Below are positions 6,912-55,086 of a DNA stretch of 64,000 nt, one piece after another (position 1 is the stretch's first letter; each line of letters starts with the position of its first letter). The translations under genes were made by a program, and so were the position numbers. Origin of the DNA: Achromobacter pestifer. Lineage in GTDB: Bacteria; Pseudomonadota; Gammaproteobacteria; Burkholderiales; Burkholderiaceae_B. Below the pieces are notes generated by a model. That model ran no database searches. It saw only the letters and a program-made list of their open reading frames with translations, and was not told the DNA's origin. The DNA is taken from contig NZ_CP053985.1 of assembly GCF_013267355.1 (NCBI RefSeq), positions 2,976,001-3,040,000 of the forward strand, read 5' to 3'.

Positions 6912-7367
6912 TCAGAGTTGGCCGGTCGTGAGCATCTTGTGGACGACGGCCGGATCGGGCTCTGTGGCCAGGGCTTCGCGCAAGGCCTTGTTCGACATGA
7001 GCTGCGCCAGTTCGGCCAGGATGTCCAGGTGCTGCTGCGTGGCCGTTTCCGGCACCAGCAGGCAGAGCAGCATCGACACGGGCTGTCCGTCAGGCGCATC
7101 GAAGGTGATGGGCTGGGCCAGGCGGATGAAGGCCGCCAGGGCCTGCTCCAGGCCCTTCACCCGGCCGTGCGGCACCGCCACGCCCTGGCCGAGCGCGGTG
7201 GAACCCAGGCGTTCCCGGGCGAACAGGCTGTCGAACACGAGTGCGCGCGCCAGACCATGATTGTTTTCAAAGAGAAGACCGGCCTGTTCGAACGCACGTT
7301 TCTTGCTCGTTGCGAGCATATCGAGCACGACGTTGCCGGCGGGTAGGATGCGCGACAAATGATTCAT
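6912..7367 (-). CDS. ptsN: PTS IIA-like nitrogen regulatory protein (EIIA-Ntr)
   Basis: The 151-residue PTS EIIA domain of the fructose/mannitol type is phosphorylated on the His in AVPHGR and acts as a regulator (for example of K+ uptake, sensor kinases and stress) rather than in sugar uptake. Alignment by eye with enterobacterial PtsN supports the ATG at 7367, since the LSRIL segment just after it is conserved. There is no Shine-Dalgarno. A perfect TATAAT lies 7 nt before the start codon, which suggests a leaderless message. It is followed by hprK in the same direction. Confidence 0.93.
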   Translation of the reverse strand: MNHLSRILPAGNVVLDMLATSKKRAFEQAGLLFENNHGLARALVFDSLFARERLGSTALGQGVAVPHGRVKGLEQALAAFIRLAQPITFDAPDGQPVSMLLCLLVPETATQQHLDILAELAQLMSNKALREALATEPDPAVVHKMLTTGQL

Positions 7368-45256: not shown

Positions 45257-46684
45257 TTACCGGGTTGCGACGGCCATCGGTCGAATTGCTGCGTCCCCAT
45301 TTGCCTGGCCGATCGAGGGGCGGCACGCCATCGAGAACCCGAAAGTATTGACGCCACCCTCGCTGCGTACGAACACGTCGCCCTGGTGGATCGAGGCGAT
45401 GGCCTTCACGATGGCCAGGCCCAGCCCGTGATGCCTGTCGCTGTGGCTGCGCGCGGTTTCCACTCTGAAAAAGCGCTCGAACAGACGCGGCAGAACCTGT
45501 GGCGCGATGGGAGCGCCCTGATTGGTGACGGAAACGTAGGCGAGTCCATCCTTTTCCTCCAGTTCCACGCGGATCCCGGTTTGCGCGGCGGTGTAGCAGG
45601 CCGCGTTTTCCAGCAGGTTTGCCAGCGCCCGATGGAACAATCGGCGGTCCGCGCAGGCGTGGGCGTCGCCTTCAAGGGCGACGGTCAGTTCTTTTTCCAC
45701 GAACAGCGGCTCAAGATATTCCATGGTCTTGGCCGCCTCATCCCGCAACGACACGTCGCCCATGTCCATGGCCATCCGGCCGACCTGCGCATGTGACAGG
45801 AACAGCATGTCGTTGACGATGGAGGTCATCCGTTCAAGTTCCTCCATGTTGGACTGCAGCAGCTCCTTGAATTCGTGTTCGTCCTTGCACACCGCCAGTC
45901 CGAGTTGTGTCTGGCCGATCAGGTTGGTCAGTGGCGTGCGCAGTTCATGCGCGACGTCGGCATTGAAGCTCTCGAGCTGGCGCCAGGCCACTTCCTGCCG
46001 CTCCAGCACGCCATTGAAGGAAATGGCCAGGTCCTTGATCTCCGCCGGAAGCTGCTCGATGCCCAGCCGCTGCCCGGTACTTCCCGGCGCCAGACCTTGC
46101 GCCTGTCCGCCCAAGCGCCTGACAGGCAAAAGTCCCAGCCGCGCGATGCCGTAGCCCAGGAAAGCCACCAACAAGGCGCCTGCGATCGATATCGCGATCA
46201 AGACGTTGGTGAAGTCGTCCAGCGTCTTCATGTAGGGTGTCGAATCCAGCGCGACGACCAAGCGCACGGCCGGGCGGCTGCCTGCGGGGGGAATGGTCGT
46301 GACGAGCACGTTCAGCGGACAGCAGCCGCTATTGCCCGGCAAGATAGAAAATCCGTCCGGCACCTGGCTCCATGTCACGCCGTCGGGCGCCGCGCCGCCA
46401 TAGCTGTAGAAGGGATCGTCGCTTACGATCCAGTGCTGCGCGTCGGGCCCGTCGTCCGGCGCCATGGCGCTGAGCTTGGAGACAACCTTATGCCATGTCT
46501 CCGGAGATTGCCGCGACATCACCAGCGGATCCAGGAACGAGTGGCGCAGCTCGAGTTCGTTGTGCATCTGCTGCTGCAGGGAGAGCCTGAGCGACTCCTG
46601 CAGCAGGACGGCGCATACCGAGACGATCAGCGCCACCGACAGGGCGAACATCAGCGCCAAGCGCGTCGATATGGAGGAAATCAT
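45257..46684 (-). CDS. Sensor histidine kinase (CusS-like heavy-metal sensor family)
   Basis: The 475-residue membrane kinase has TM1 at about 8-30, a periplasmic sensor (about 31-155) with an adjacent Cys121-Cys122 pair, TM2 at about 160-182, HAMP, the H-box [13 protein letters not shown] (His246), and an ATPase domain with N, G1 (NQGAPIAP) and G2 (HGLGLAIV) boxes. The family profile is that of copper/silver sensors, but the linked pump is a drug-type RND. Its start overlaps the regulator stop by 4 bp (TCAT on the plus strand). Confidence 0.9.
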
Positions 46685-47379
46685 GGCTGCTCGGCGGCGG
46701 ATTCGTTGCGGCTTTCGAGCAGATAACCCATGCCTCTGACGGTATGCAGCAGCTTCTTCTCGTAGGGAGCGTCAACCTTGAGGCGCAAGCGCCGCATGGC
46801 CACTTCGACCACATTGGCGTCGCTGTCGAAATTCATGTCCCAGACCTGTTCCGCGATCATCAGCTTGGACAGGATCTCGCCCTGGTGCCGCACCAGCAGG
46901 CTGAGCAGCGCGAACTCCTTGGCGGTCAGGTCCAGCCGCTGCCCGGCGCGGGTGGCGCGCCGCGCCATCATGTCGACCTGCAGGTCGTCCGCCTGCAGCA
47001 GGGTCGACTCGCCGCCCGCGCCACTCCGGCGCCGCAGCAGGGCCTGGATCCGCGCCACCAGCTCGGTGAAGGAGAACGGCTTGGGTAAATAATCGTCCGC
47101 GCCCTGGCGCAGACCTTTGACCCGTTCATCCACGGAACCGCGGGCAGACAGCATCAGCACCGGCGTCTGCTTGCGCGCGCGCAGCAGCCCCAGGACCGCA
47201 TAGCCGTCCTGGCCAGGCAGCATGACGTCCAGGATGATGCCGTCGTAGTCATGCTCCAGGGCCAGGAACAGGCCTTCCGCTCCATCGCCGGACACGTCCA
47301 CGGTATAGCCCAGGCCGGTCAGCCCGCGCTTGATGTACGAGGCCGTCTTCGGCTCGTCTTCCACTACCAGCAGGCGCAT
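46681..47379 (-). CDS. OmpR-family response regulator (CusR-like)
   Basis: The 232-residue regulator has a receiver domain (phospho-acceptor Asp51 in [10 protein letters not shown], acidic pocket VEDE) and a C-terminal winged helix (about 130-225). OmpR-family regulators bind direct repeats head to tail, normally at about 11-bp spacing. Upstream of this gene and of three neighbouring units I find exactly such 11-bp repeats of GTCAG type, so I infer it is the activator of all four. The ATG at 47379 is chosen by homology (MRLLVVEDE). Confidence 0.92.
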
Positions 47380-47482: not shown

Positions 47483-47526
47483 ACTGTAGACCGCCGCCGC
47501 CGTCGCCAACGTGACCCGAAACTGAC
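47483..47526 (-). promoter_or_regulatory. Predicted response-regulator promoter of the two-component operon
   Basis: Reading on the minus strand: GTCAG (47526-47522), N6, GTCAC (47515-47511), N6, GACGG (47504-47500), exactly 11 bp, then TACAGT (47488-47483) as the -10. The third unit is the weakest. The arrangement is the same as at the three other promoters of the cluster and predicts autoregulation. Confidence 0.6.
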
Positions 47527-47547
47527 GCCATTGTCAGGAACCGCTCC

Positions 47548-47613
47548 GTCAGCCAGGAGACATATTCGCGTCAGGAAAGGGTCACGCTGAGGTCAGCGGC
47601 CCCTGGCTAGAGT
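47548..47613 (+). promoter_or_regulatory. Five-unit 11-bp direct-repeat array and -10 of the glycosyltransferase gene
   Basis: Units start at 47548 (GTCAG), 47559 (GACAT), 47570 (GTCAG), 47581 (GTCAC) and 47592 (GTCAG), each 11 bp apart. After the last unit come exactly 11 bp and TAGAGT (47608-47613). The repeat replaces a normal -35, as in PhoB-type activation. The glycosyltransferase ATG is 62 nt further on. Confidence 0.7.
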
Positions 47614-48840: not shown

Positions 48841-50199
48841 CTACCCGCCTTGCATGCCGCTCGCCACTCCCAGCGTCCGGTAGATGTCCACCCAGCGTAG
48901 CGCCACATCTATCGTGGCGCTTGAAAGCGTGCGTTCGATGTCATAGGCGCTGCGCTGCGCATCCAGGACTTCGAGCAGCGACACCATGCCTTCCTCGTAT
49001 TGCCTGCGCGCCAGATCCGACGCCGTTTGGGCGGCTGCCGCGGCGGCGTCCAGCCGCGCCTGGCGCAGCATGGATTGCCCGTAGGCGTGGATGCTGGTCT
49101 GGCTCTCCCTGAACGCCGACCGTAAAGCGGACTCATAAGCCAGGCGGCTCTGCGCCAATCTGGCGTCCGCGCTTTCCACTCGGGCCCGGATTGCGCCGAA
49201 ATCGAACAGCGGCTGCAGGAGCTGCAGACTGAGGGACCATCCTGGACTGCCGACGCCCCGCTCGAAGCCTCCGAGCGCGCCCAGGGTCAACTGCGGAAAC
49301 CTCGCGGCCCGTTCCGCCGCCAGCTCTCCCCCCGCGGCAGCCATGCGCCGCTCGGCGGCCCGGACATCCGGCCGCCAGCGCAACGTCTCGGCGGGCATGG
49401 CCAACAGGGCGTTTGCCGCTACCCGTTGCGGCACCCGCGGTTGTTCCGATCCAAGTTCCAGCAGGCGATCGATCGTCGCGACGTCGGTCGCCAGCAGGTA
49501 GGCCAGTGCATAGCGGGCGCTGGTGATCTGCTGCTGCGCCACCGGGATTTCAGCCAGGGTGGATTCGTGCTCCGCCAGCATGCGCTCGGCGTCGAGCCGG
49601 TTCGCCATTCCCATGCGTCGTCGCGCCTCGACAAGCTGGCTGGTGCGTCCGAGCACCTCGCCCGTTCTTTGCGCCAGTTGCGCCTGCCGCTGCGCCAGGC
49701 GCAACTGGAGGTAGACGACGGCGACCTCCGCCATCAAGCTCAGCCGTAGGGCTTCGTAGTCATGCACGGTGGCCTGCGCCAGGGCCCCGGCGGCATCGCG
49801 CTGAGCCCGCAGCCGTCCGAACAGGTCGATCTCCCAGGCCAGGTCCGCGCCATACCAGGAGGCGGGCTCTAGGCCAGAGGCGCGTTGCGCACTGGCTCCC
49901 GCGCCCAGTGCCGGGAACAGCGCAGCGCCGGCCAGCCGGCGCTGCGCGCGTTGTTCCCGGATACGTTCAGCCGCCACCGCCAGGTCGAGATTCGACGCCA
50001 GCACCTGTTCAAGCAGGTGGTTCAGCGCCGCATCCTCGAAGCCGTCCCACCAGCGCAGCGGCATACCGGCCTGCGCCAGCAGTACATCCGCGGGTTGGCC
50101 CAGGTCTTGGGCGGATGGCTCGGGAGCCACGGCCGAGCAGCCGGCCAGGAACGCCGCCAGGACGATGGCGGTGCCTGCTTTCACGTGTCTCTTCCTCAT
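48841..50199 (-). CDS. RND efflux outer-membrane lipoprotein (NodT/OprM family)
   Basis: Outer-membrane channel of the tripartite pump. From the ATG at 50199 it has 452 residues: a lipoprotein signal with lipobox LAGC (about Cys20), then two OEP repeat domains of beta-strands and long helices. The ATG overlaps the stop of the RND pump gene by 4 bp. The longer upstream frame lies inside the pump gene and is spurious. It is the last gene of the operon and is convergent with the glycosyltransferase. Confidence 0.93.
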   Translation of the reverse strand: MRKRHVKAGTAIVLAAFLAGCSAVAPEPSAQDLGQPADVLLAQAGMPLRWWDGFEDAALNHLLEQVLASNLDLAVAAERIREQRAQRRLAGAALFPALGAGASAQRASGLEPASWYGADLAWEIDLFGRLRAQRDAAGALAQATVHDYEALRLSLMAEVAVVYLQLRLAQRQAQLAQRTGEVLGRTSQLVEARRRMGMANRLDAERMLAEHESTLAEIPVAQQQITSARYALAYLLATDVATIDRLLELGSEQPRVPQRVAANALLAMPAETLRWRPDVRAAERRMAAAGGELAAERAARFPQLTLGALGGFERGVGSPGWSLSLQLLQPLFDFGAIRARVESADARLAQSRLAYESALRSAFRESQTSIHAYGQSMLRQARLDAAAAAAQTASDLARRQYEEGMVSLLEVLDAQRSAYDIERTLSSATIDVALRWVDIYRTLGVASGMQGG

Positions 50200-53100
50200 G
50201 CTTGGCGGCTCTTTGTCAACGCTTGCGGTGCCGATGGAACTGGCCCCTTGTCCCGCAGGAATAGGCGGTTCAATGCCAGGAATACCACCGGCGTGGTCAG
50301 CAGGGTCAGCAGCTGGCTGATGGCCAATCCGCCCACAATGGCGACGCCCAGCGGCTCGCGCAGCTCCGCGCCGGTGCCGAACGCCAGCATCAGTGGCACC
50401 GCGCCCAGTGCAGCCGCCAGGGTCGTCATCATGATCGGACGGAACCGCACCAGGCAGGCTTCGCGCATGGCTTGCCGCGCTGGCAGGCCGCGCTCGCGCT
50501 GTGCCTGCAAGGCGAAGTCGACCAGCAGGATGCCGTTCTTCTTGACGATGCCGATCAGCAGGATCAGGCCGATCAGCGCCATTACCGAGAAATCCAGTCC
50601 CCACAGCCACAGGAACAGGATGGCGCCGAGCCCGGCCGACGGCAGCGTGGAAAGTATCGCCAGGGGATGCACGAAGCTCTCGTAAAGTACGCCCAGGATG
50701 ATGTAGACAGCCAGCAGCGCCGCCAGGATCAGCCATGGCTGGCTGGCGAGCGAGTCCTGGAAAGCCTGGGCCGCACCCTGGAAGGTACCGGTCACGCTCG
50801 CGGGCATGTCCAGCGTCTCGCGGATCTGTTCCAGCCGCTGCACCGCCTCGCCTAGCGCGACGCCGGGCGCCAGGTTGAAAGACAGGTTGGCGGCGGGCAG
50901 CAGCGAATCGTGCACGATCACAGCGGGCCCCCTTGTTGGCTCTTCGATTTGCGCGAAGCTCAGTAACGGGACCATCTCCCCGGTCAGGGGCGAGCGCAGT
51001 TGGAAGTACGCCAGGCTTTCAGCCGTACCGCGCTGGTGGCGGTCGATCTCCAGCACCACGTAATATTGATTGGCCTCGGTCTGGATCTGGTTGACCTGAC
51101 GCTGGCCGAACGCGTCGTACAGCGCATTGTCCACGTCGCTGGCGCTGAATCCATAGCGCGCCGCGACCGTCCGGTCCAGCGTCAGCCGCGTGATTTGCGC
51201 GTCCCACTGCAAATCGTGCGAGGCATCGCGGAAGATCGGGTCGCGCTGCATCGCGCTGGTCAGCTTCTCCGCCCACTCGGCCAGTCTTGCGCTGTCTTGC
51301 GCGCGCATTACGTAGAGATATTGGGCCCGCGGCTGGCCCGCGCCGATGTTGATGTCCTGGGCGGCGCGCAGGAATACCTGTATGCCGGGGATCTGCGCCA
51401 ACTGCGGCCGTAGCCGGTCGATGATTTCGCTGGCGCTGGCGTCGCGGTCGCCCGGGTCGTTCAGTACCAGCCAGATGCGACCGTTGCCTAGCGTGGCGGC
51501 GCCGCCGACCGCGTGGTTGAGGCCCACGATGTCCGGATCGGCCTGGACGATGGCTTCTATCTGCTTGTGCTTTTGCACCATGTTTTCGTATGAAATATCG
51601 GAAGCCGCGCGCGTCACGCCCACGATGAACCCGGTGTCCTGCAGCGGGAAGAAGCCTTTCGGAATCGCCATGAAGCTGGCGACGCTGGCAAGTACGGTCA
51701 GCAGGAACGCCAGCAGCGTAATGCGCTGGTGCGCCAGCACCCAGTCCAGCGCATGCGTGTAGAGCCCGAGCAAGCGGCTTGGCCGGCCGGGCGAGGCTCC
51801 GTGATGCTGAGGTTTCATGAAAAGGCTGGCCAGCGTGGGGGCGAGCGTCAGGCAGACGATCAAGGAAATCATGATCGCGGCCGTCGCGGTCAGCGCGAAC
51901 TCGCTGAACAGGCGGCCGACTATCCCCTCCATGAACAGCAGCGGGGTGAAGGCCGCCACCAACGATACGCTGATGGACATGACGGTAAAGCCAATTTCCT
52001 GGGTTCCTTTCAAGGCGGCCTCCCGCATGCCGGCGCCGGCTTCGAGATGGCGGTGGATGTTCTCGATGACCACGATGGCGTCGTCCACGATGAAGCCCAC
52101 TGCCACCACGATCGCCACCAGAGTCAGATTGTTCAGGCTGAACCCGACCAAGGACATCAGCGCGAAAGTCGCGACCAGCGACACCCCCAGCACCGCCGCC
52201 ACGATCAGCGTGGCCGAAGTCTGCCGCAGGAACACCGCCATGACGCCAATCACCAGGACGATGGCGATGGCCAAGGCCAGCTGTACCTCGTGCAGGGACG
52301 AGCGTATGGTGCGGGTGCGGTCGTTGTAGACCGCCACCGCCACGTCCGCCGGCAGCGCCGCCTGCAGGGCGGGCAGCGCCCGGGTGATCCGGTCTGCCGT
52401 GGCAACGATGTTGGCGCCGGGCTGGCGCCGGATGAGCAATACCACGCCGGGTTTGCCATCAGGCCAGACGGCGGTGTAGTCATCCTCGGCGCCGTGCTCT
52501 ACCGTGGCCACGTCCCGCAGCAACACCGGCTCGCCCTCGCGGTAGCCGATGACCAGCGCGCCGTAGTCCGCGGCATCGAACAACTGATCGTTCACGTCCA
52601 GCGTCGCGACCCGGTCGGCACTGAACAACGCGCCCTTGGGCAAGTTCACGCTGCTGCGTTGTATCGCCTCGCGCACGTCTTGCAAGGTGCTGCGCGTCGC
52701 CGCCAAGGCTTCCGGATTGGCGCGTATCCGTATCGCCGGCCGGCGCAGCCCGGTCAGCGATATCTGGCCCACGCCCTCCACCTGGCTCAATTGGCGCGCC
52801 AGCACCGTCTCGACCTGGTCGCTCAGTTCGGTCAGCGACAGGGTCTCGGAGGTGGCGCTGAGGATGAGGACCGGGCTGTCGGCCGGATTCACCTTGCGCC
52901 AGGTCGGCAGGTTGGGAAGGTCGGCCGGCAGCCGGCCCGCCGCGGTATTGATAGCCGCCTGAATTTCCTGGGCAGCCACATCGATGTCCTTGTCCAGCGA
53001 AAACTGCAACGTCAGTGTGGTGGCTCCGATGGAACTGGACGACGTCATTTCGGTCACGCCCGGAATTGCGCTGAACTGCACTTCCAGCGGCGTGGCCACC

Positions 53101-53294
53101 GACGACGCCATGGTCTGGGCGCTGGCTCCCGGCAGCCGCGCCTCGACCTGGATCGTGGGGAAGTCCACTTCGGGCAACGGCGCGACGGGCAGCCGCAGAT
53201 AGGCGAGAGCGCCCAGCAGCACCGTGGCGAGTGTCAGCAGCACGGTACCCACGGGGTGCGCGATGCACCACGCATAGAGGCTAGCGCGTTGCAT
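50196..53294 (-). CDS. RND efflux pump inner-membrane transporter (HAE-1, MdtB/MdtC-like)
   Basis: The 1032-residue proton-driven exporter has 12 membrane helices and two large periplasmic loops. TM4 contains the paired acidic residues for proton relay in VGFIVDDAIVVIENI. The overall pattern fits the multidrug (HAE-1) branch near MdtB/MdtC rather than the CusA metal branch; the Met clusters and the DExxE-type TM4 motif of metal pumps are not seen. The ATG at 53294 (MQRASLYAWCI) overlaps the adaptor gene by 14 bp. Only one transporter gene is present, unlike MdtBC. Confidence 0.93.
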   Translation of the reverse strand: MQRASLYAWCIAHPVGTVLLTLATVLLGALAYLRLPVAPLPEVDFPTIQVEARLPGASAQTMASSVATPLEVQFSAIPGVTEMTSSSSIGATTLTLQFSLDKDIDVAAQEIQAAINTAAGRLPADLPNLPTWRKVNPADSPVLILSATSETLSLTELSDQVETVLARQLSQVEGVGQISLTGLRRPAIRIRANPEALAATRSTLQDVREAIQRSSVNLPKGALFSADRVATLDVNDQLFDAADYGALVIGYREGEPVLLRDVATVEHGAEDDYTAVWPDGKPGVVLLIRRQPGANIVATADRITRALPALQAALPADVAVAVYNDRTRTIRSSLHEVQLALAIAIVLVIGVMAVFLRQTSATLIVAAVLGVSLVATFALMSLVGFSLNNLTLVAIVVAVGFIVDDAIVVIENIHRHLEAGAGMREAALKGTQEIGFTVMSISVSLVAAFTPLLFMEGIVGRLFSEFALTATAAIMISLIVCLTLAPTLASLFMKPQHHGASPGRPSRLLGLYTHALDWVLAHQRITLLAFLLTVLASVASFMAIPKGFFPLQDTGFIVGVTRAASDISYENMVQKHKQIEAIVQADPDIVGLNHAVGGAATLGNGRIWLVLNDPGDRDASASEIIDRLRPQLAQIPGIQVFLRAAQDINIGAGQPRAQYLYVMRAQDSARLAEWAEKLTSAMQRDPIFRDASHDLQWDAQITRLTLDRTVAARYGFSASDVDNALYDAFGQRQVNQIQTEANQYYVVLEIDRHQRGTAESLAYFQLRSPLTGEMVPLLSFAQIEEPTRGPAVIVHDSLLPAANLSFNLAPGVALGEAVQRLEQIRETLDMPASVTGTFQGAAQAFQDSLASQPWLILAALLAVYIILGVLYESFVHPLAILSTLPSAGLGAILFLWLWGLDFSVMALIGLILLIGIVKKNGILLVDFALQAQRERGLPARQAMREACLVRFRPIMMTTLAAALGAVPLMLAFGTGAELREPLGVAIVGGLAISQLLTLLTTPVVFLALNRLFLRDKGPVPSAPQALTKSRQA

Positions 53295-54489
53295 CGCCGC
53301 CCGCCTTTGATTTGCCCGCGGCCGCCATGCGGGATTCGCCGGCCGCGCTATCCACTGCTTCCGCGCGCACCCGCGCCCCGGGGTAGAGCCGCGAGGCGCC
53401 ATCCACCACGACGGACGCGCCCTGGTCCACGCCCGCGACCGCCGTCCACGCATCGGTGCCGTACAGCACCTGCACGGGAACCGGATGCGTCGTGGCGTCG
53501 TCGACGCGCCAGACGAACCTGCCGTCCTCGCCACGCTGCACTGCCCTGGTCGGGACCACCTGTACGTCGTTCATGACCTGCAGCGCCACCGTTGCCACAA
53601 CCGACTGCCCCGGCCAGAGCCGCGCCTGTGGATTGTCGAACAGCGCCTTCAGGCGCACGGTGCCGCTGACCGTGGAGACCTGGTTGTCCACCAGGGCCAG
53701 CCGCCCCTGCGCCAGCAGTTCGCCGCCATCGCTGGCGTAGGCCTGCACCGGCACCGGGGATGCGCCAGCAAGCGCCTCGCGGATGCGCGGGAGCAGGGCC
53801 TGGGGCAGGGAAATCTCCACCGAAATCGGATCCATCTGGACAATCGTGAACAGCACCTGCGCTTCGGCCGAACGCAATACATTGCCCGCATGCAGCATCT
53901 GGATACCAACCCGCCCGTTCAATGGCGAACGGATTTCCGTGTGCGAAAGGAGGACTTGCTGGGTTTGCACCGCAGCCTCCAGATTGCGCGCGGAGGCGTC
54001 CAGCTCGCTCACGCGAGCCGCCTGCTGTTCGAGCACCTGGGCGGATACCGCTTCCTCTTTGCGCAGGCTGCGATAGCGCGCCAGGTCCAGCCGCGCCACC
54101 CGCAATTGCGCGGCCGCCATGGCGTGCTGCGCACGCGCCTGCGCCAGCGCAGACACAATCAACCGGTCGTCGATGCGGGCCAGGACGTCTCCCGCCTTCA
54201 CCGTCATGCCTTCCTGTGCCACGATTTGGTTCAGCACGCCGTCAACCTGGCTGCGCACATCGACGCTGCGCAGCGAACGGACGTCGCCCGGCGATCTGTG
54301 CAGCATCGGCATCTCCGCGCGCTGCTCCACCATGGCGGTTCGCACGGGGATCAGCGGCCGCTCGGTCAGTGCGACCGCGCCGGTGTCCGCCTGCCACCAC
54401 AGGTAGGCGGCGAAGGCGGCCCCTGCGGCCAGTGCAGATGCCGACGCGATCGCGCGCCGCCGCGTGAAGAATCTCGATGAGTACGCCAT
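53281..54489 (-). CDS. RND efflux periplasmic adaptor (membrane fusion protein)
   Basis: The 402-residue adaptor joins the inner-membrane pump to the outer-membrane channel. It has an N-terminal signal-anchor helix (about 12-32), a lipoyl/barrel-sandwich domain (LRSVDVRSQVDGVLNQIVAQEGMTV), a coiled-coil hairpin (about 130-190) and beta-barrel domains, typical of MdtA. A Lys/Gly-rich tail follows. The ATG at 54489 is chosen by homology. It heads the three-gene pump operon, about 102 nt after the predicted -10. Confidence 0.92.
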   Translation of the reverse strand: MAYSSRFFTRRRAIASASALAAGAAFAAYLWWQADTGAVALTERPLIPVRTAMVEQRAEMPMLHRSPGDVRSLRSVDVRSQVDGVLNQIVAQEGMTVKAGDVLARIDDRLIVSALAQARAQHAMAAAQLRVARLDLARYRSLRKEEAVSAQVLEQQAARVSELDASARNLEAAVQTQQVLLSHTEIRSPLNGRVGIQMLHAGNVLRSAEAQVLFTIVQMDPISVEISLPQALLPRIREALAGASPVPVQAYASDGGELLAQGRLALVDNQVSTVSGTVRLKALFDNPQARLWPGQSVVATVALQVMNDVQVVPTRAVQRGEDGRFVWRVDDATTHPVPVQVLYGTDAWTAVAGVDQGASVVVDGASRLYPGARVRAEAVDSAAGESRMAAAGKSKAGGDATR

Positions 54490-54591: not shown

Positions 54592-54646
54592 ACTCTATAG
54601 ATCCCGCACTGTCCCGGCGCTGACGCCTTGCTGACATGGAGATAAC
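54592..54646 (-). promoter_or_regulatory. Predicted response-regulator promoter of the RND efflux operon
   Basis: On the minus strand four units are phased at 11 bp: GTTAT (54646-54642), GTCAG (54635-54631), GTCAG (54624-54620) and GACAG (54613-54609). Then come exactly 11 bp and TAGAGT (54597-54592), the same hexamer and spacing as at the glycosyltransferase promoter. The adaptor ATG lies 102 nt beyond. Confidence 0.68.
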
Positions 54647-54693
54647 CGAAATGGCCCGTCGAAAATGACGTGGCCGCGCCGCCTGACAACGAC

Positions 54694-54737
54694 GTTATTT
54701 GCGGGTCATGCTCAGGTCAGCTGTGGTTGCGCAGAAT
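54694..54737 (+). promoter_or_regulatory. Predicted response-regulator promoter of the small secreted protein gene
   Basis: Units GTTAT (54694), GTCAT (54705) and GTCAG (54716) are phased at 11 bp. Exactly 11 bp after the last unit lies CAGAAT (54732-54737). The 21 bp at 54703-54723 match 18 of 21 positions of the glycosyltransferase promoter (47579-47599). The ATG is 64 nt beyond the hexamer. Confidence 0.66.
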
Positions 54738-54801: not shown

Positions 54802-55086
54802 ATGCGCATCAAGACCTTTTCTCTTGCTTCGGCGGCCGCCATCGTCATTGGAATCTTTTCCAGCAGCGCGACGGCCTCTGAAGAAACCCAAGTCCCGCCG
54901 CCCAAACCCAGCGAACTGACCCGCGCGGACCGTGTCGCGGACTTGCAGGCATGGCGAGCATCCGGCTTGGACGAGCTTTCTCGTGGGGAAAGCTCGCCTG
55001 ACATCTATGGCGCGGAGTATCGCGAGCGCTACGCCACTTACTTGCGCCTGCGCGCCGAGGCCCGCCAGCAATCCGCTCCAGGCTAA
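54802..55086 (+). CDS. Small secreted protein (DUF4148-like)
   Basis: The 94-residue product has a signal peptide (about 1-25, ending ATA) and a short Pro-rich stretch. A single helical unit follows (LTRADRVADLQAWRASGLDELSRGE, then a Tyr/Arg-rich end), resembling DUF4148 proteins. A GGAG lies 9 nt before the ATG. The longer frame from 54670 would run across the predicted promoter and is rejected. It shares promoter architecture with the efflux pump and glycosyltransferase, so it may be a periplasmic stress or accessory protein. Function unknown. Confidence 0.8.
   Translation: MRIKTFSLASAAAIVIGIFSSSATASEETQVPPPKPSELTRADRVADLQAWRASGLDELSRGESSPDIYGAEYRERYATYLRLRAEARQQSAPG

What the first reader, a model, noticed from the sequence alone, without database searches (positions are those of the whole stretch)
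54592..54737. The same 11-bp repeat/-10 architecture 7 kb away drives the RND pump operon and a small secreted protein
In the divergent region, the leftward pump promoter has GTTAT, GTCAG, GTCAG, GACAG at 11-bp steps, 11 bp, TAGAGT. The rightward promoter has GTTAT, GTCAT, GTCAG, 11 bp, CAGAAT. The 21-bp stretch at 54703-54723 matches 18 of 21 bases of 47579-47599. With the two arrays near 47.5 kb, four promoters share identical spacing from last repeat to -10. This defines a candidate regulon: kinase/regulator, GT4 glycosyltransferase, HAE-1 efflux pump, DUF4148-like secreted protein. I know of no described system with this composition.
Basis: partly seen in the sequence, partly recalled or inferred. 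Interest (0 to 1): 0.88.

Follow-up and report, generated by a model that had tools for sequence, protein, structure and literature searches.

The report
Local CusR-type two-component efflux regulon
Four bacterial gene promoters share a precisely spaced set of short DNA repeats that very probably let one sensor-regulator pair switch on itself, a drug-type efflux pump, a sugar-transfer enzyme and a small exported protein together; the wiring is of a known kind, but I found no description of this regulator group and gene set.

Summary
All four promoters (regulator, GT4 glycosyltransferase, RND pump operon, DUF4148 protein) carry three or more half-sites at 11-bp steps, the last one 11 bp before the -10. 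A weight matrix trained only on sites around regulator orthologues outside Achromobacter picks exactly these four places in the window (27-32 bits; next best -0.8). A genome-wide profile finds only these four convincingly in 7.18 Mb. The sites track one clade of CusR/HprR/AgrR-type response regulators: all 15 chromosomal orthologues with at least 70% identity have one in their own promoter. The regulon is well supported by sequence.

The architecture is not new: it is the CusR-family operator, seen in the E. coli cusC promoter and studied for AgrR. Klebsiella crrAB already has a similar gene set. What looks new is a regulator clade with TGTCAG half-sites (more distant relatives use TGTAAT/TGTCAT) and a drug-type pump, a GT4 enzyme and a DUF4148 protein as targets. 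Signal, binding and sign of regulation are untested.

The parts
54592..54647 (-). Operator/promoter of the RND pump operon: four direct half-sites (GTTAT, GTCAG, GTCAG, GACAG) at 11-bp steps, 11 bp, -10 TAGAGT
   Evidence: conserved in A. anxifer and A. pestifer
54682..54737 (+). Operator/promoter of the DUF4148 gene: inverted half-site CTGACA, then GTTAT, GTCAT, GTCAG, 11 bp, -10 CAGAAT
   Evidence: conserved in A. pestifer; in A. anxifer an array of this kind lies with a DUF4148 gene on another contig
47483..47538 (-). Operator/promoter of the response regulator-kinase operon (autoregulation): inverted CTGACA, then GTCAG, GTCAC, GACGG, 11 bp, -10 TACAGT
47548..47613 (+). Operator/promoter of the GT4 gene: five direct half-sites (GTCAG, GACAT, GTCAG, GTCAC, GTCAG), 11 bp, -10 TAGAGT
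46681..47379 (-). Response regulator, OmpR family, CusR/CzcR/CopR/SilR subfamily (TIGR01387 294 bits, cut-off 279), 232 aa; D51 in the usual phospho-acceptor place (by eye)
45257..46684 (-). Sensor histidine kinase, heavy-metal-type subfamily (TIGR01386 377 bits, cut-off 293); periplasmic part differs from that of two metal-type paralogues of the genome
47676..48791 (+). GT4-family glycosyltransferase, 371 aa
53281..54489 (-). Periplasmic adaptor of the pump (RND_mfp; nearest equivalog MdtA/MuxA, below its cut-off)
50196..53534 (-). RND permease ORF, HAE-1 type, MdtB/MdtC-like; the listed ORF starts upstream, the ACR_tran domain begins at residue 88
48841..50736 (-). Outer-membrane factor ORF (NodT/OEP); the listed ORF starts upstream, the NodT match begins at residue 212
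54802..55086 (+). Small protein, DUF4148 (31.1 bits, cut-off 27), 94 aa; N-terminus reads as a signal peptide by eye

Best explanation
The four arrays are operators of the adjacent CusR-type response regulator. The kinase senses an envelope or chemical stress of unknown nature and controls the regulator's phosphorylation. [quoted passage not shown] the half-site nearest the promoter stands about where a -35 element would be, so the regulator replaces the -35 and recruits RNA polymerase (class-II activation). It activates its own operon (positive autoregulation), the GT4 gene, the MdtABC-like drug-type RND pump operon and the DUF4148 protein. Shown here: the arrays, their conservation, their restriction in this genome to these four promoters, and their tracking with one clade of regulators. 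Inferred: binding, phosphorylation, activation rather than repression, and the stimulus.
For: (1) A matrix from 33 sites outside Achromobacter finds exactly the four window sites at 27.2-32.5 bits; next best -0.8. (2) Genome-wide profile R1 (trained with the window sites): the four sites at E 6.5e-8 to 2.4e-5, the other 12 listed matches E 0.17 or worse. Profile R2, trained without Achromobacter: 3 of 4 at E<=0.01 in the own genome, the fourth at E 0.012 in a 164-kb search. (3) Own-promoter sites: 15 of 15 regulators with >=70% identity score 30.9-54.6 (7 of these 15 sites, among them the four of Achromobacter, were not in training); of 55 regulators with <=66% identity, 11 exceed 10 bits, all 11 with TGTAAT/TGTCAT instead of TGTCAG in the palindrome. 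(4) The 21 close regulators (these 15 and 6 on plasmids), each with a site, form one clade, support 100/99. (5) Half-site columns identical across species 54 of 60, spacer columns 47 of 92 (three species, two for DUF4148). (6) A. anxifer shows no DUF4148 gene at the locus and its rightward array is decayed; a DUF4148 gene (66% over residues 22-83) on another contig has an array of 36.1 bits. (7) GT4 homologues of two Bordetella-like genomes have sites although not next to the regulator: 29.6 bits on another contig, 17.3 bits about 24 kb away. (8) For AgrR, mutating the inverted repeat nearly abolished activation and mutating the promoter-proximal direct repeat largely affected it.
Against: No expression, binding or footprint data. 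R2 also matches 31 of the 253 family genomes without a close orthologue; of the 17 of these that I looked at, 10 lie at RND outer-membrane-factor genes, 5 at other CusR-type regulators and 2 at neither (flanking ORFs of one of the two read like copper genes by eye), so the motif is not private to this regulator. One of the 15 orthologue-bearing genomes (G057) was missed by R2 at E<=0.01, though a site is there. AgrR was reported active unphosphorylated, so the phosphorylation step is uncertain. Seeds were chosen partly by -10 match and promoter position, which inflates matrix scores. Many of the 55 distant regulators are near-copies from one genus, so they are fewer independent cases than 55. 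The treekit output warns that a long branch joins the clade to its sister group.
Confidence: 0.86

Rival explanations
1. The arrays are read by another CusR-type paralogue of the same genome (three others with 61-64% identity) or by several of them together.
For: The architecture is shared across the family. In Pseudomonas, CusR, CopR and CzcR act on one palindrome (PMC11195947, passages). R2 matches sites of other CusR-type systems.
Against: The paralogue at 3.54 Mb has its own array with GTAAT half-sites (seen; same array in two relatives). No strict GTCAG array stands at any of the 55 more distant regulator loci. The arrays track the close orthologue in other genera.
Confidence: 0.08
2. The arrays are boxes of PhoB or another OmpR-family regulator that binds 11-bp TGTCA direct repeats, and the neighbourhood is coincidental.
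For: Pho boxes are tandem 11-bp CTGTCA repeats with a similar distance to the -10 (recalled, no call).
Against: Only four convincing sites in the genome, all next to this one system. Two of the four carry the CusR-type inverted half-site, and the sites stand at this regulator's own promoter in other genera. PhoB distribution itself was not examined.
Confidence: 0.03
3. The regulator binds the sites but represses some of the units, so the four are not a co-induced set.
For: CopR can block CusR activation at a shared palindrome. The divergent regulator and GT4 arrays are close together and could interfere.
Against: All four sites have the same upstream distance to the -10, which is also that of E. 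coli cusC; AgrR is described as a type-II activator at most promoters studied.
Confidence: 0.06

Closest known systems
AgrR of Cupriavidus metallidurans and its AgrR box (PMC7380067; abstract, passages and part 1 of 2 of the Discussion seen)
   Same: OmpR-family regulator with a 6-4-6 inverted repeat and in-phase direct half-site repeats; type-II activator; autoregulation
   Different: Half-site ATKACA/TGTMAT, silver-resistance setting; here TGTCAG, and up to five direct half-sites
E. coli CusR at cusC, and the HprR/CusR box at hiuH
   Same: The cusC promoter has TGACA-N4-TGTCA, then GTCAC and ATCAG at 11-bp steps and TAAAGT 11 bp on (22.0 bits with the matrix). The HprR/CusR box CATTACAAAATTGTAATG is in print (PMC9302797, passages)
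   Different: The pump there is a copper/silver RND (annotation); here a drug-type one. The regulator here is below the cut-offs of the CusR and HprR equivalogs. The hprR-hiuH region scores only 2.3 bits
Klebsiella pneumoniae crrAB region (PMC6026146, passages)
   Same: Two-component system with neighbouring glycosyltransferase, acridine/RND-type pump and small protein gene (crrC), raised together
   Different: Colistin setting; the passages seen do not call crrC a DUF4148 protein; homology of the parts was not tested here
IrlR2-IrlS2-BPSS1996 of Burkholderia pseudomallei (PMC7549894, passages)
   Same: Heavy-metal-type two-component system next to a DUF4148 gene
   Different: DUF4148 downstream, possibly in one operon; no arrays, pump or glycosyltransferase in the passages seen

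Membership tests
CusR/CzcR/CopR/SilR-type response regulators (TIGR01387) | Receiver plus Trans_reg_C domains and subfamily score above cut-off | tested here: met
   294.4 bits against 279.2; domains
CusR equivalog (NF007346) | Score above 420 bits | tested here: not met
   267.7 bits
HprR equivalog (NF008567) | Score above 353 bits | tested here: not met
   260.4 bits
CusR/AgrR-type operator | Palindromic TGACA-N4-TGTCA-like core with in-phase direct half-sites | tested here: met
   Met at the regulator and DUF4148 promoters (with GTTAT as the second palindrome half at DUF4148); the GT4 and pump promoters lack the inverted half-site and share only phase and distance
CusR/AgrR-type operator | Bound by the cognate regulator | not testable with these tools
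   No binding data
HAE-1 (drug-type) RND permease | ACR_tran domain; nearer to drug than to metal RND models | tested here: met
   ACR_tran 956 bits; RND_permease_2 1217 bits (cut-off 1250, so just below), metal model TIGR00914 333 bits (cut-off 701)
DUF4148 (PF13663) | Score above the gathering cut-off | tested here: met
   31.1 bits against 27
crrAB-type locus | Homology of regulator, kinase, glycosyltransferase and small protein to the crr genes | not tested
   crr sequences were not fetched; likeness rests on gene content only

The most novel reading that the evidence does not exclude
A clade of CusR-type two-component systems has changed both its half-site (TGTAAT/TGTCAT to TGTCAG, alongside DNA-binding-domain differences such as S171-K172 for P-R) and its job: from metal export to a portable envelope/electrophile stress regulon. 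Target genes carry the operator with them or acquire it anew, as with DUF4148 in A. anxifer, GT4 in Bordetella-like genomes, and aldo/keto reductase, cupin and flavodoxin genes on enterobacterial plasmids.
Probability: 0.35. Interest if true: 0.6.

Novelty: new variant of a known kind. Interest (0 to 1): 0.45.

Why it matters
If true, a two-component system of an opportunistic genus, for which I found no description, co-controls a drug-type efflux pump with a sugar-transfer enzyme and a small exported protein, a combination that resembles the crrAB region. It also gives a comparative case of how a paralogous regulator family changes DNA specificity and targets while keeping operator geometry, and a searchable motif for members of this clade in Bordetella-like genomes and on enterobacterial plasmids.

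Tried and rejected
Simple genome pattern GTCAG-N6-GTCAG with one mismatch was too loose (347 hits against 266 for the reversed pattern); replaced by profiles. The GT4 gene was a poor guide to the locus: of the 80 named loci it brought in, only A. anxifer and A. pestifer show regulator, kinase, GT4 and pump together (some loci are short). A cysteine or metal ligand shared by the kinases was sought by eye: the four Achromobacter kinases share a CC pair, the six enterobacterial ones a single Cys there, the Bordetella-like ones do not all have one, so no signal is claimed. E192 as the residue that sets the last base of the half-site was considered and rejected: the clade has E and 14 distant regulators D, but the own paralogue in L195 has E too and a GTAAT-type array. 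A literature link of the plasmid version to hypochlorite response gave no paper (five terms). PhoB was judged unlikely from the distribution of sites. The DUF4148 fold and the GT4 acceptor were not pursued.

Searches of print behind 'no description found': (open-licence library only; subscription papers are mostly missing).

Full report
1. What is there. The window lies in a genome of 7,177,303 bases in two contigs; its nearest named relatives by the GT4 gene are Achromobacter anxifer and A. pestifer. Leftward from 47.4 kb run a response regulator and its kinase; rightward a GT4 glycosyltransferase; leftward from 54.5 kb an adaptor, an RND permease and an outer-membrane factor; rightward a 94-aa DUF4148 protein. 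The regulator and kinase belong to the heavy-metal-type subfamilies TIGR01387 and TIGR01386, but the regulator is below the CusR and HprR equivalog cut-offs. The pump is drug-type: metal RND model 333 bits against a cut-off of 701.

2. The observation. In a grid of 81 step/distance settings the window has four hits at step 11/distance 11 and three in the other 80 settings; the Markov mean at (11,11) is 0.005 with a maximum of 1 in 200.

3. Relatives. A. pestifer has the whole locus and A. anxifer all but DUF4148. The alignments keep half-sites better than spacers: 54 of 60 against 47 of 92 columns; -10 columns 23 of 24 (three species, two for DUF4148). Regulator orthologues (E <= 1e-98) were found in 15 of 268 genomes of the family, and 74.8-75.4% identical ones in 17 plasmid records of the listing (six of these fetched). 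Arrays of the same geometry stand at the regulator's operon, at DUF4148 genes, at LysR genes and at an alcohol-dehydrogenase-type gene in Bordetella-like genomes, and at cupin, flavodoxin and aldo/keto-reductase genes on the plasmids.

4. Matrix and profile tests. From I kept 40 seeds by promoter position and -10; other listed matches (inside genes, off-register or poor in -10) were left out by hand, as were the window's own. Seven of the 40 are from A. anxifer and A. pestifer. The matrix from the other 33 finds the four window sites at 32.5, 31.4, 30.0 and 27.2 bits; the next is -0.8. Profile R1 (41 sites: the 4 window sites and 37 of the 40 seeds) finds the four in the whole genome at E 6.5e-8 to 2.4e-5; the 12 other matches up to E 10 have E 0.17-7.0 and cover 27-39 of 56 positions. 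Profile R2 (28 sites, none from Achromobacter; two sites that forced gaps were dropped) finds 3 of 4 at E<=0.01 in the own genome, under the stricter filters of a large search, and the fourth at E 0.012, over positions 22-56, in a smaller search.

5. Whose operator? Scoring the 400 bp before 70 regulator genes: all 15 with >=70% identity score 30.9-54.6 (7 of these 15 sites were not in training); of the 55 with <=66%, 11 exceed 10 bits, and those 11 have TGTAAT or TGTCAT in the palindrome in the same geometry. Many of the 55 are near-copies from one genus. With strict GTCAG arrays, 3 of 59 regulator loci match, all close orthologues; the fourth orthologue has a GTCAT/GTCAC/GACGG array. The 21 close regulators form one clade, 100/99, with a warning about a long branch. 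In the family scan, R2 matches 14 of the 15 orthologue genomes and 31 of the 253 others. Of these 31 I looked at 17: 10 lie at other RND outer-membrane-factor genes, 5 at CusR-type regulators and 2 at neither; flanking ORFs of one of the two read like copper genes by eye. That is expected if the geometry belongs to the whole family.

6. Natural experiments. In A. anxifer no DUF4148 gene was found at the locus and the rightward array is degraded. A DUF4148 gene (66% over residues 22-83) lies on another contig with an array of 36.1 bits; whether it moved or is a separate copy is not shown. A second site there (22.2 bits) precedes a gene that reads like DoxX by eye. In two Bordetella-like genomes GT4 homologues have sites away from the regulator: 29.6 bits on another contig, and 17.3 bits, with a one-base shorter palindrome, about 24 kb away. 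Of 107 GT4 loci with enough upstream sequence (two more had too little), 7 exceed 10 bits: the window locus, A. anxifer, A. pestifer (two overlapping loci), two Achromobacter paralogues with GTAAT half-sites, and Bordetella genomosp. 1. So GT4 is a target in few lineages.

7. What is known. The E. coli cusC promoter scores 22.0 with the matrix from non-Achromobacter sites and shows the whole geometry; hprR-hiuH scores 2.3. AgrR binds a 6-4-6 inverted repeat, at some operators with in-phase direct half-sites, and is described as a type-II activator (PMC7380067; abstract, passages and part 1 of 2 of the Discussion). P. putida CopR footprints extend over several TGACA-like half-sites (PMC12428095, one passage). 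CusR, CopR and CzcR can share a palindrome (PMC11195947, passages). The crr region of Klebsiella unites a two-component system, glycosyltransferase, pump and small protein (PMC6026146, passages). IrlR2-IrlS2 lies beside a DUF4148 gene (PMC7549894, passages). Two passages of PMC10920338 say that CusR-box binding turns on both divergent E. coli operons; PMC13037405 (passage) only cites the DUF4148 paper.

8. Mechanism. Best reading: class-II activation by the adjacent regulator with positive autoregulation; steps shown and inferred are separated above. Between the clade and 14 other regulators of the family taken for comparison, differences in the DNA-binding domain include S171-K172 against P-R and E192 against D (21 of 21 and 14 of 14) and V191 against I (13 of 14). 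E192 alone cannot set the half-site, since the own paralogue in L195 has E with a GTAAT-type array. The signal is unknown; oxidoreductases and efflux among clade targets hint at electrophile or oxidant stress, which is inference only.

9. Verdict. Real, conserved and well assigned; of a known kind. Interest moderate: a clade-specific half-site and an unusual target set.

Noticed in passing
L195 (own genome C2 3532000-3551000): A second regulator-kinase/GT4 module (62% and 51% identity), with a GTAAT-type array oriented towards the GT4 gene.
   Followed up: partly
L247 (own genome C2 4736000-4754000): A third CusR-type regulator (about 60%) with kinase and a DUF4148 gene (46%) beside a distant RND system; the architecture scan found no array in this stretch.
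   Followed up: partly
L111, L112, L197-L199, L201: Enterobacterial plasmids carry a 75% identical regulator with cupin, alpha/beta hydrolase and, in most, aldo/keto reductase, carboxymuconolactone decarboxylase-like and flavodoxin genes; operators of the same kind stand in the cluster. Looks like a mobile chemical-stress module.
   Followed up: partly
L252:5119-5174 (minus): Additional operator-like site (22.2 bits) in A. anxifer before a gene that reads like DoxX.
   Followed up: no
L253:6898-6953 (minus) and 7063-7118 (plus): Two further divergent sites (40.3 and 22.7 bits) in an orthologue-bearing Bordetella-like genome; one precedes an unidentified membrane-like ORF.
   Followed up: no
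L248, L251: Sister regulator group lies next to a different outer-membrane-factor/adaptor/RND operon whose promoter has a related array (CTGTCC or CTGACA ... TGTCAG ... GACAG).
   Followed up: partly
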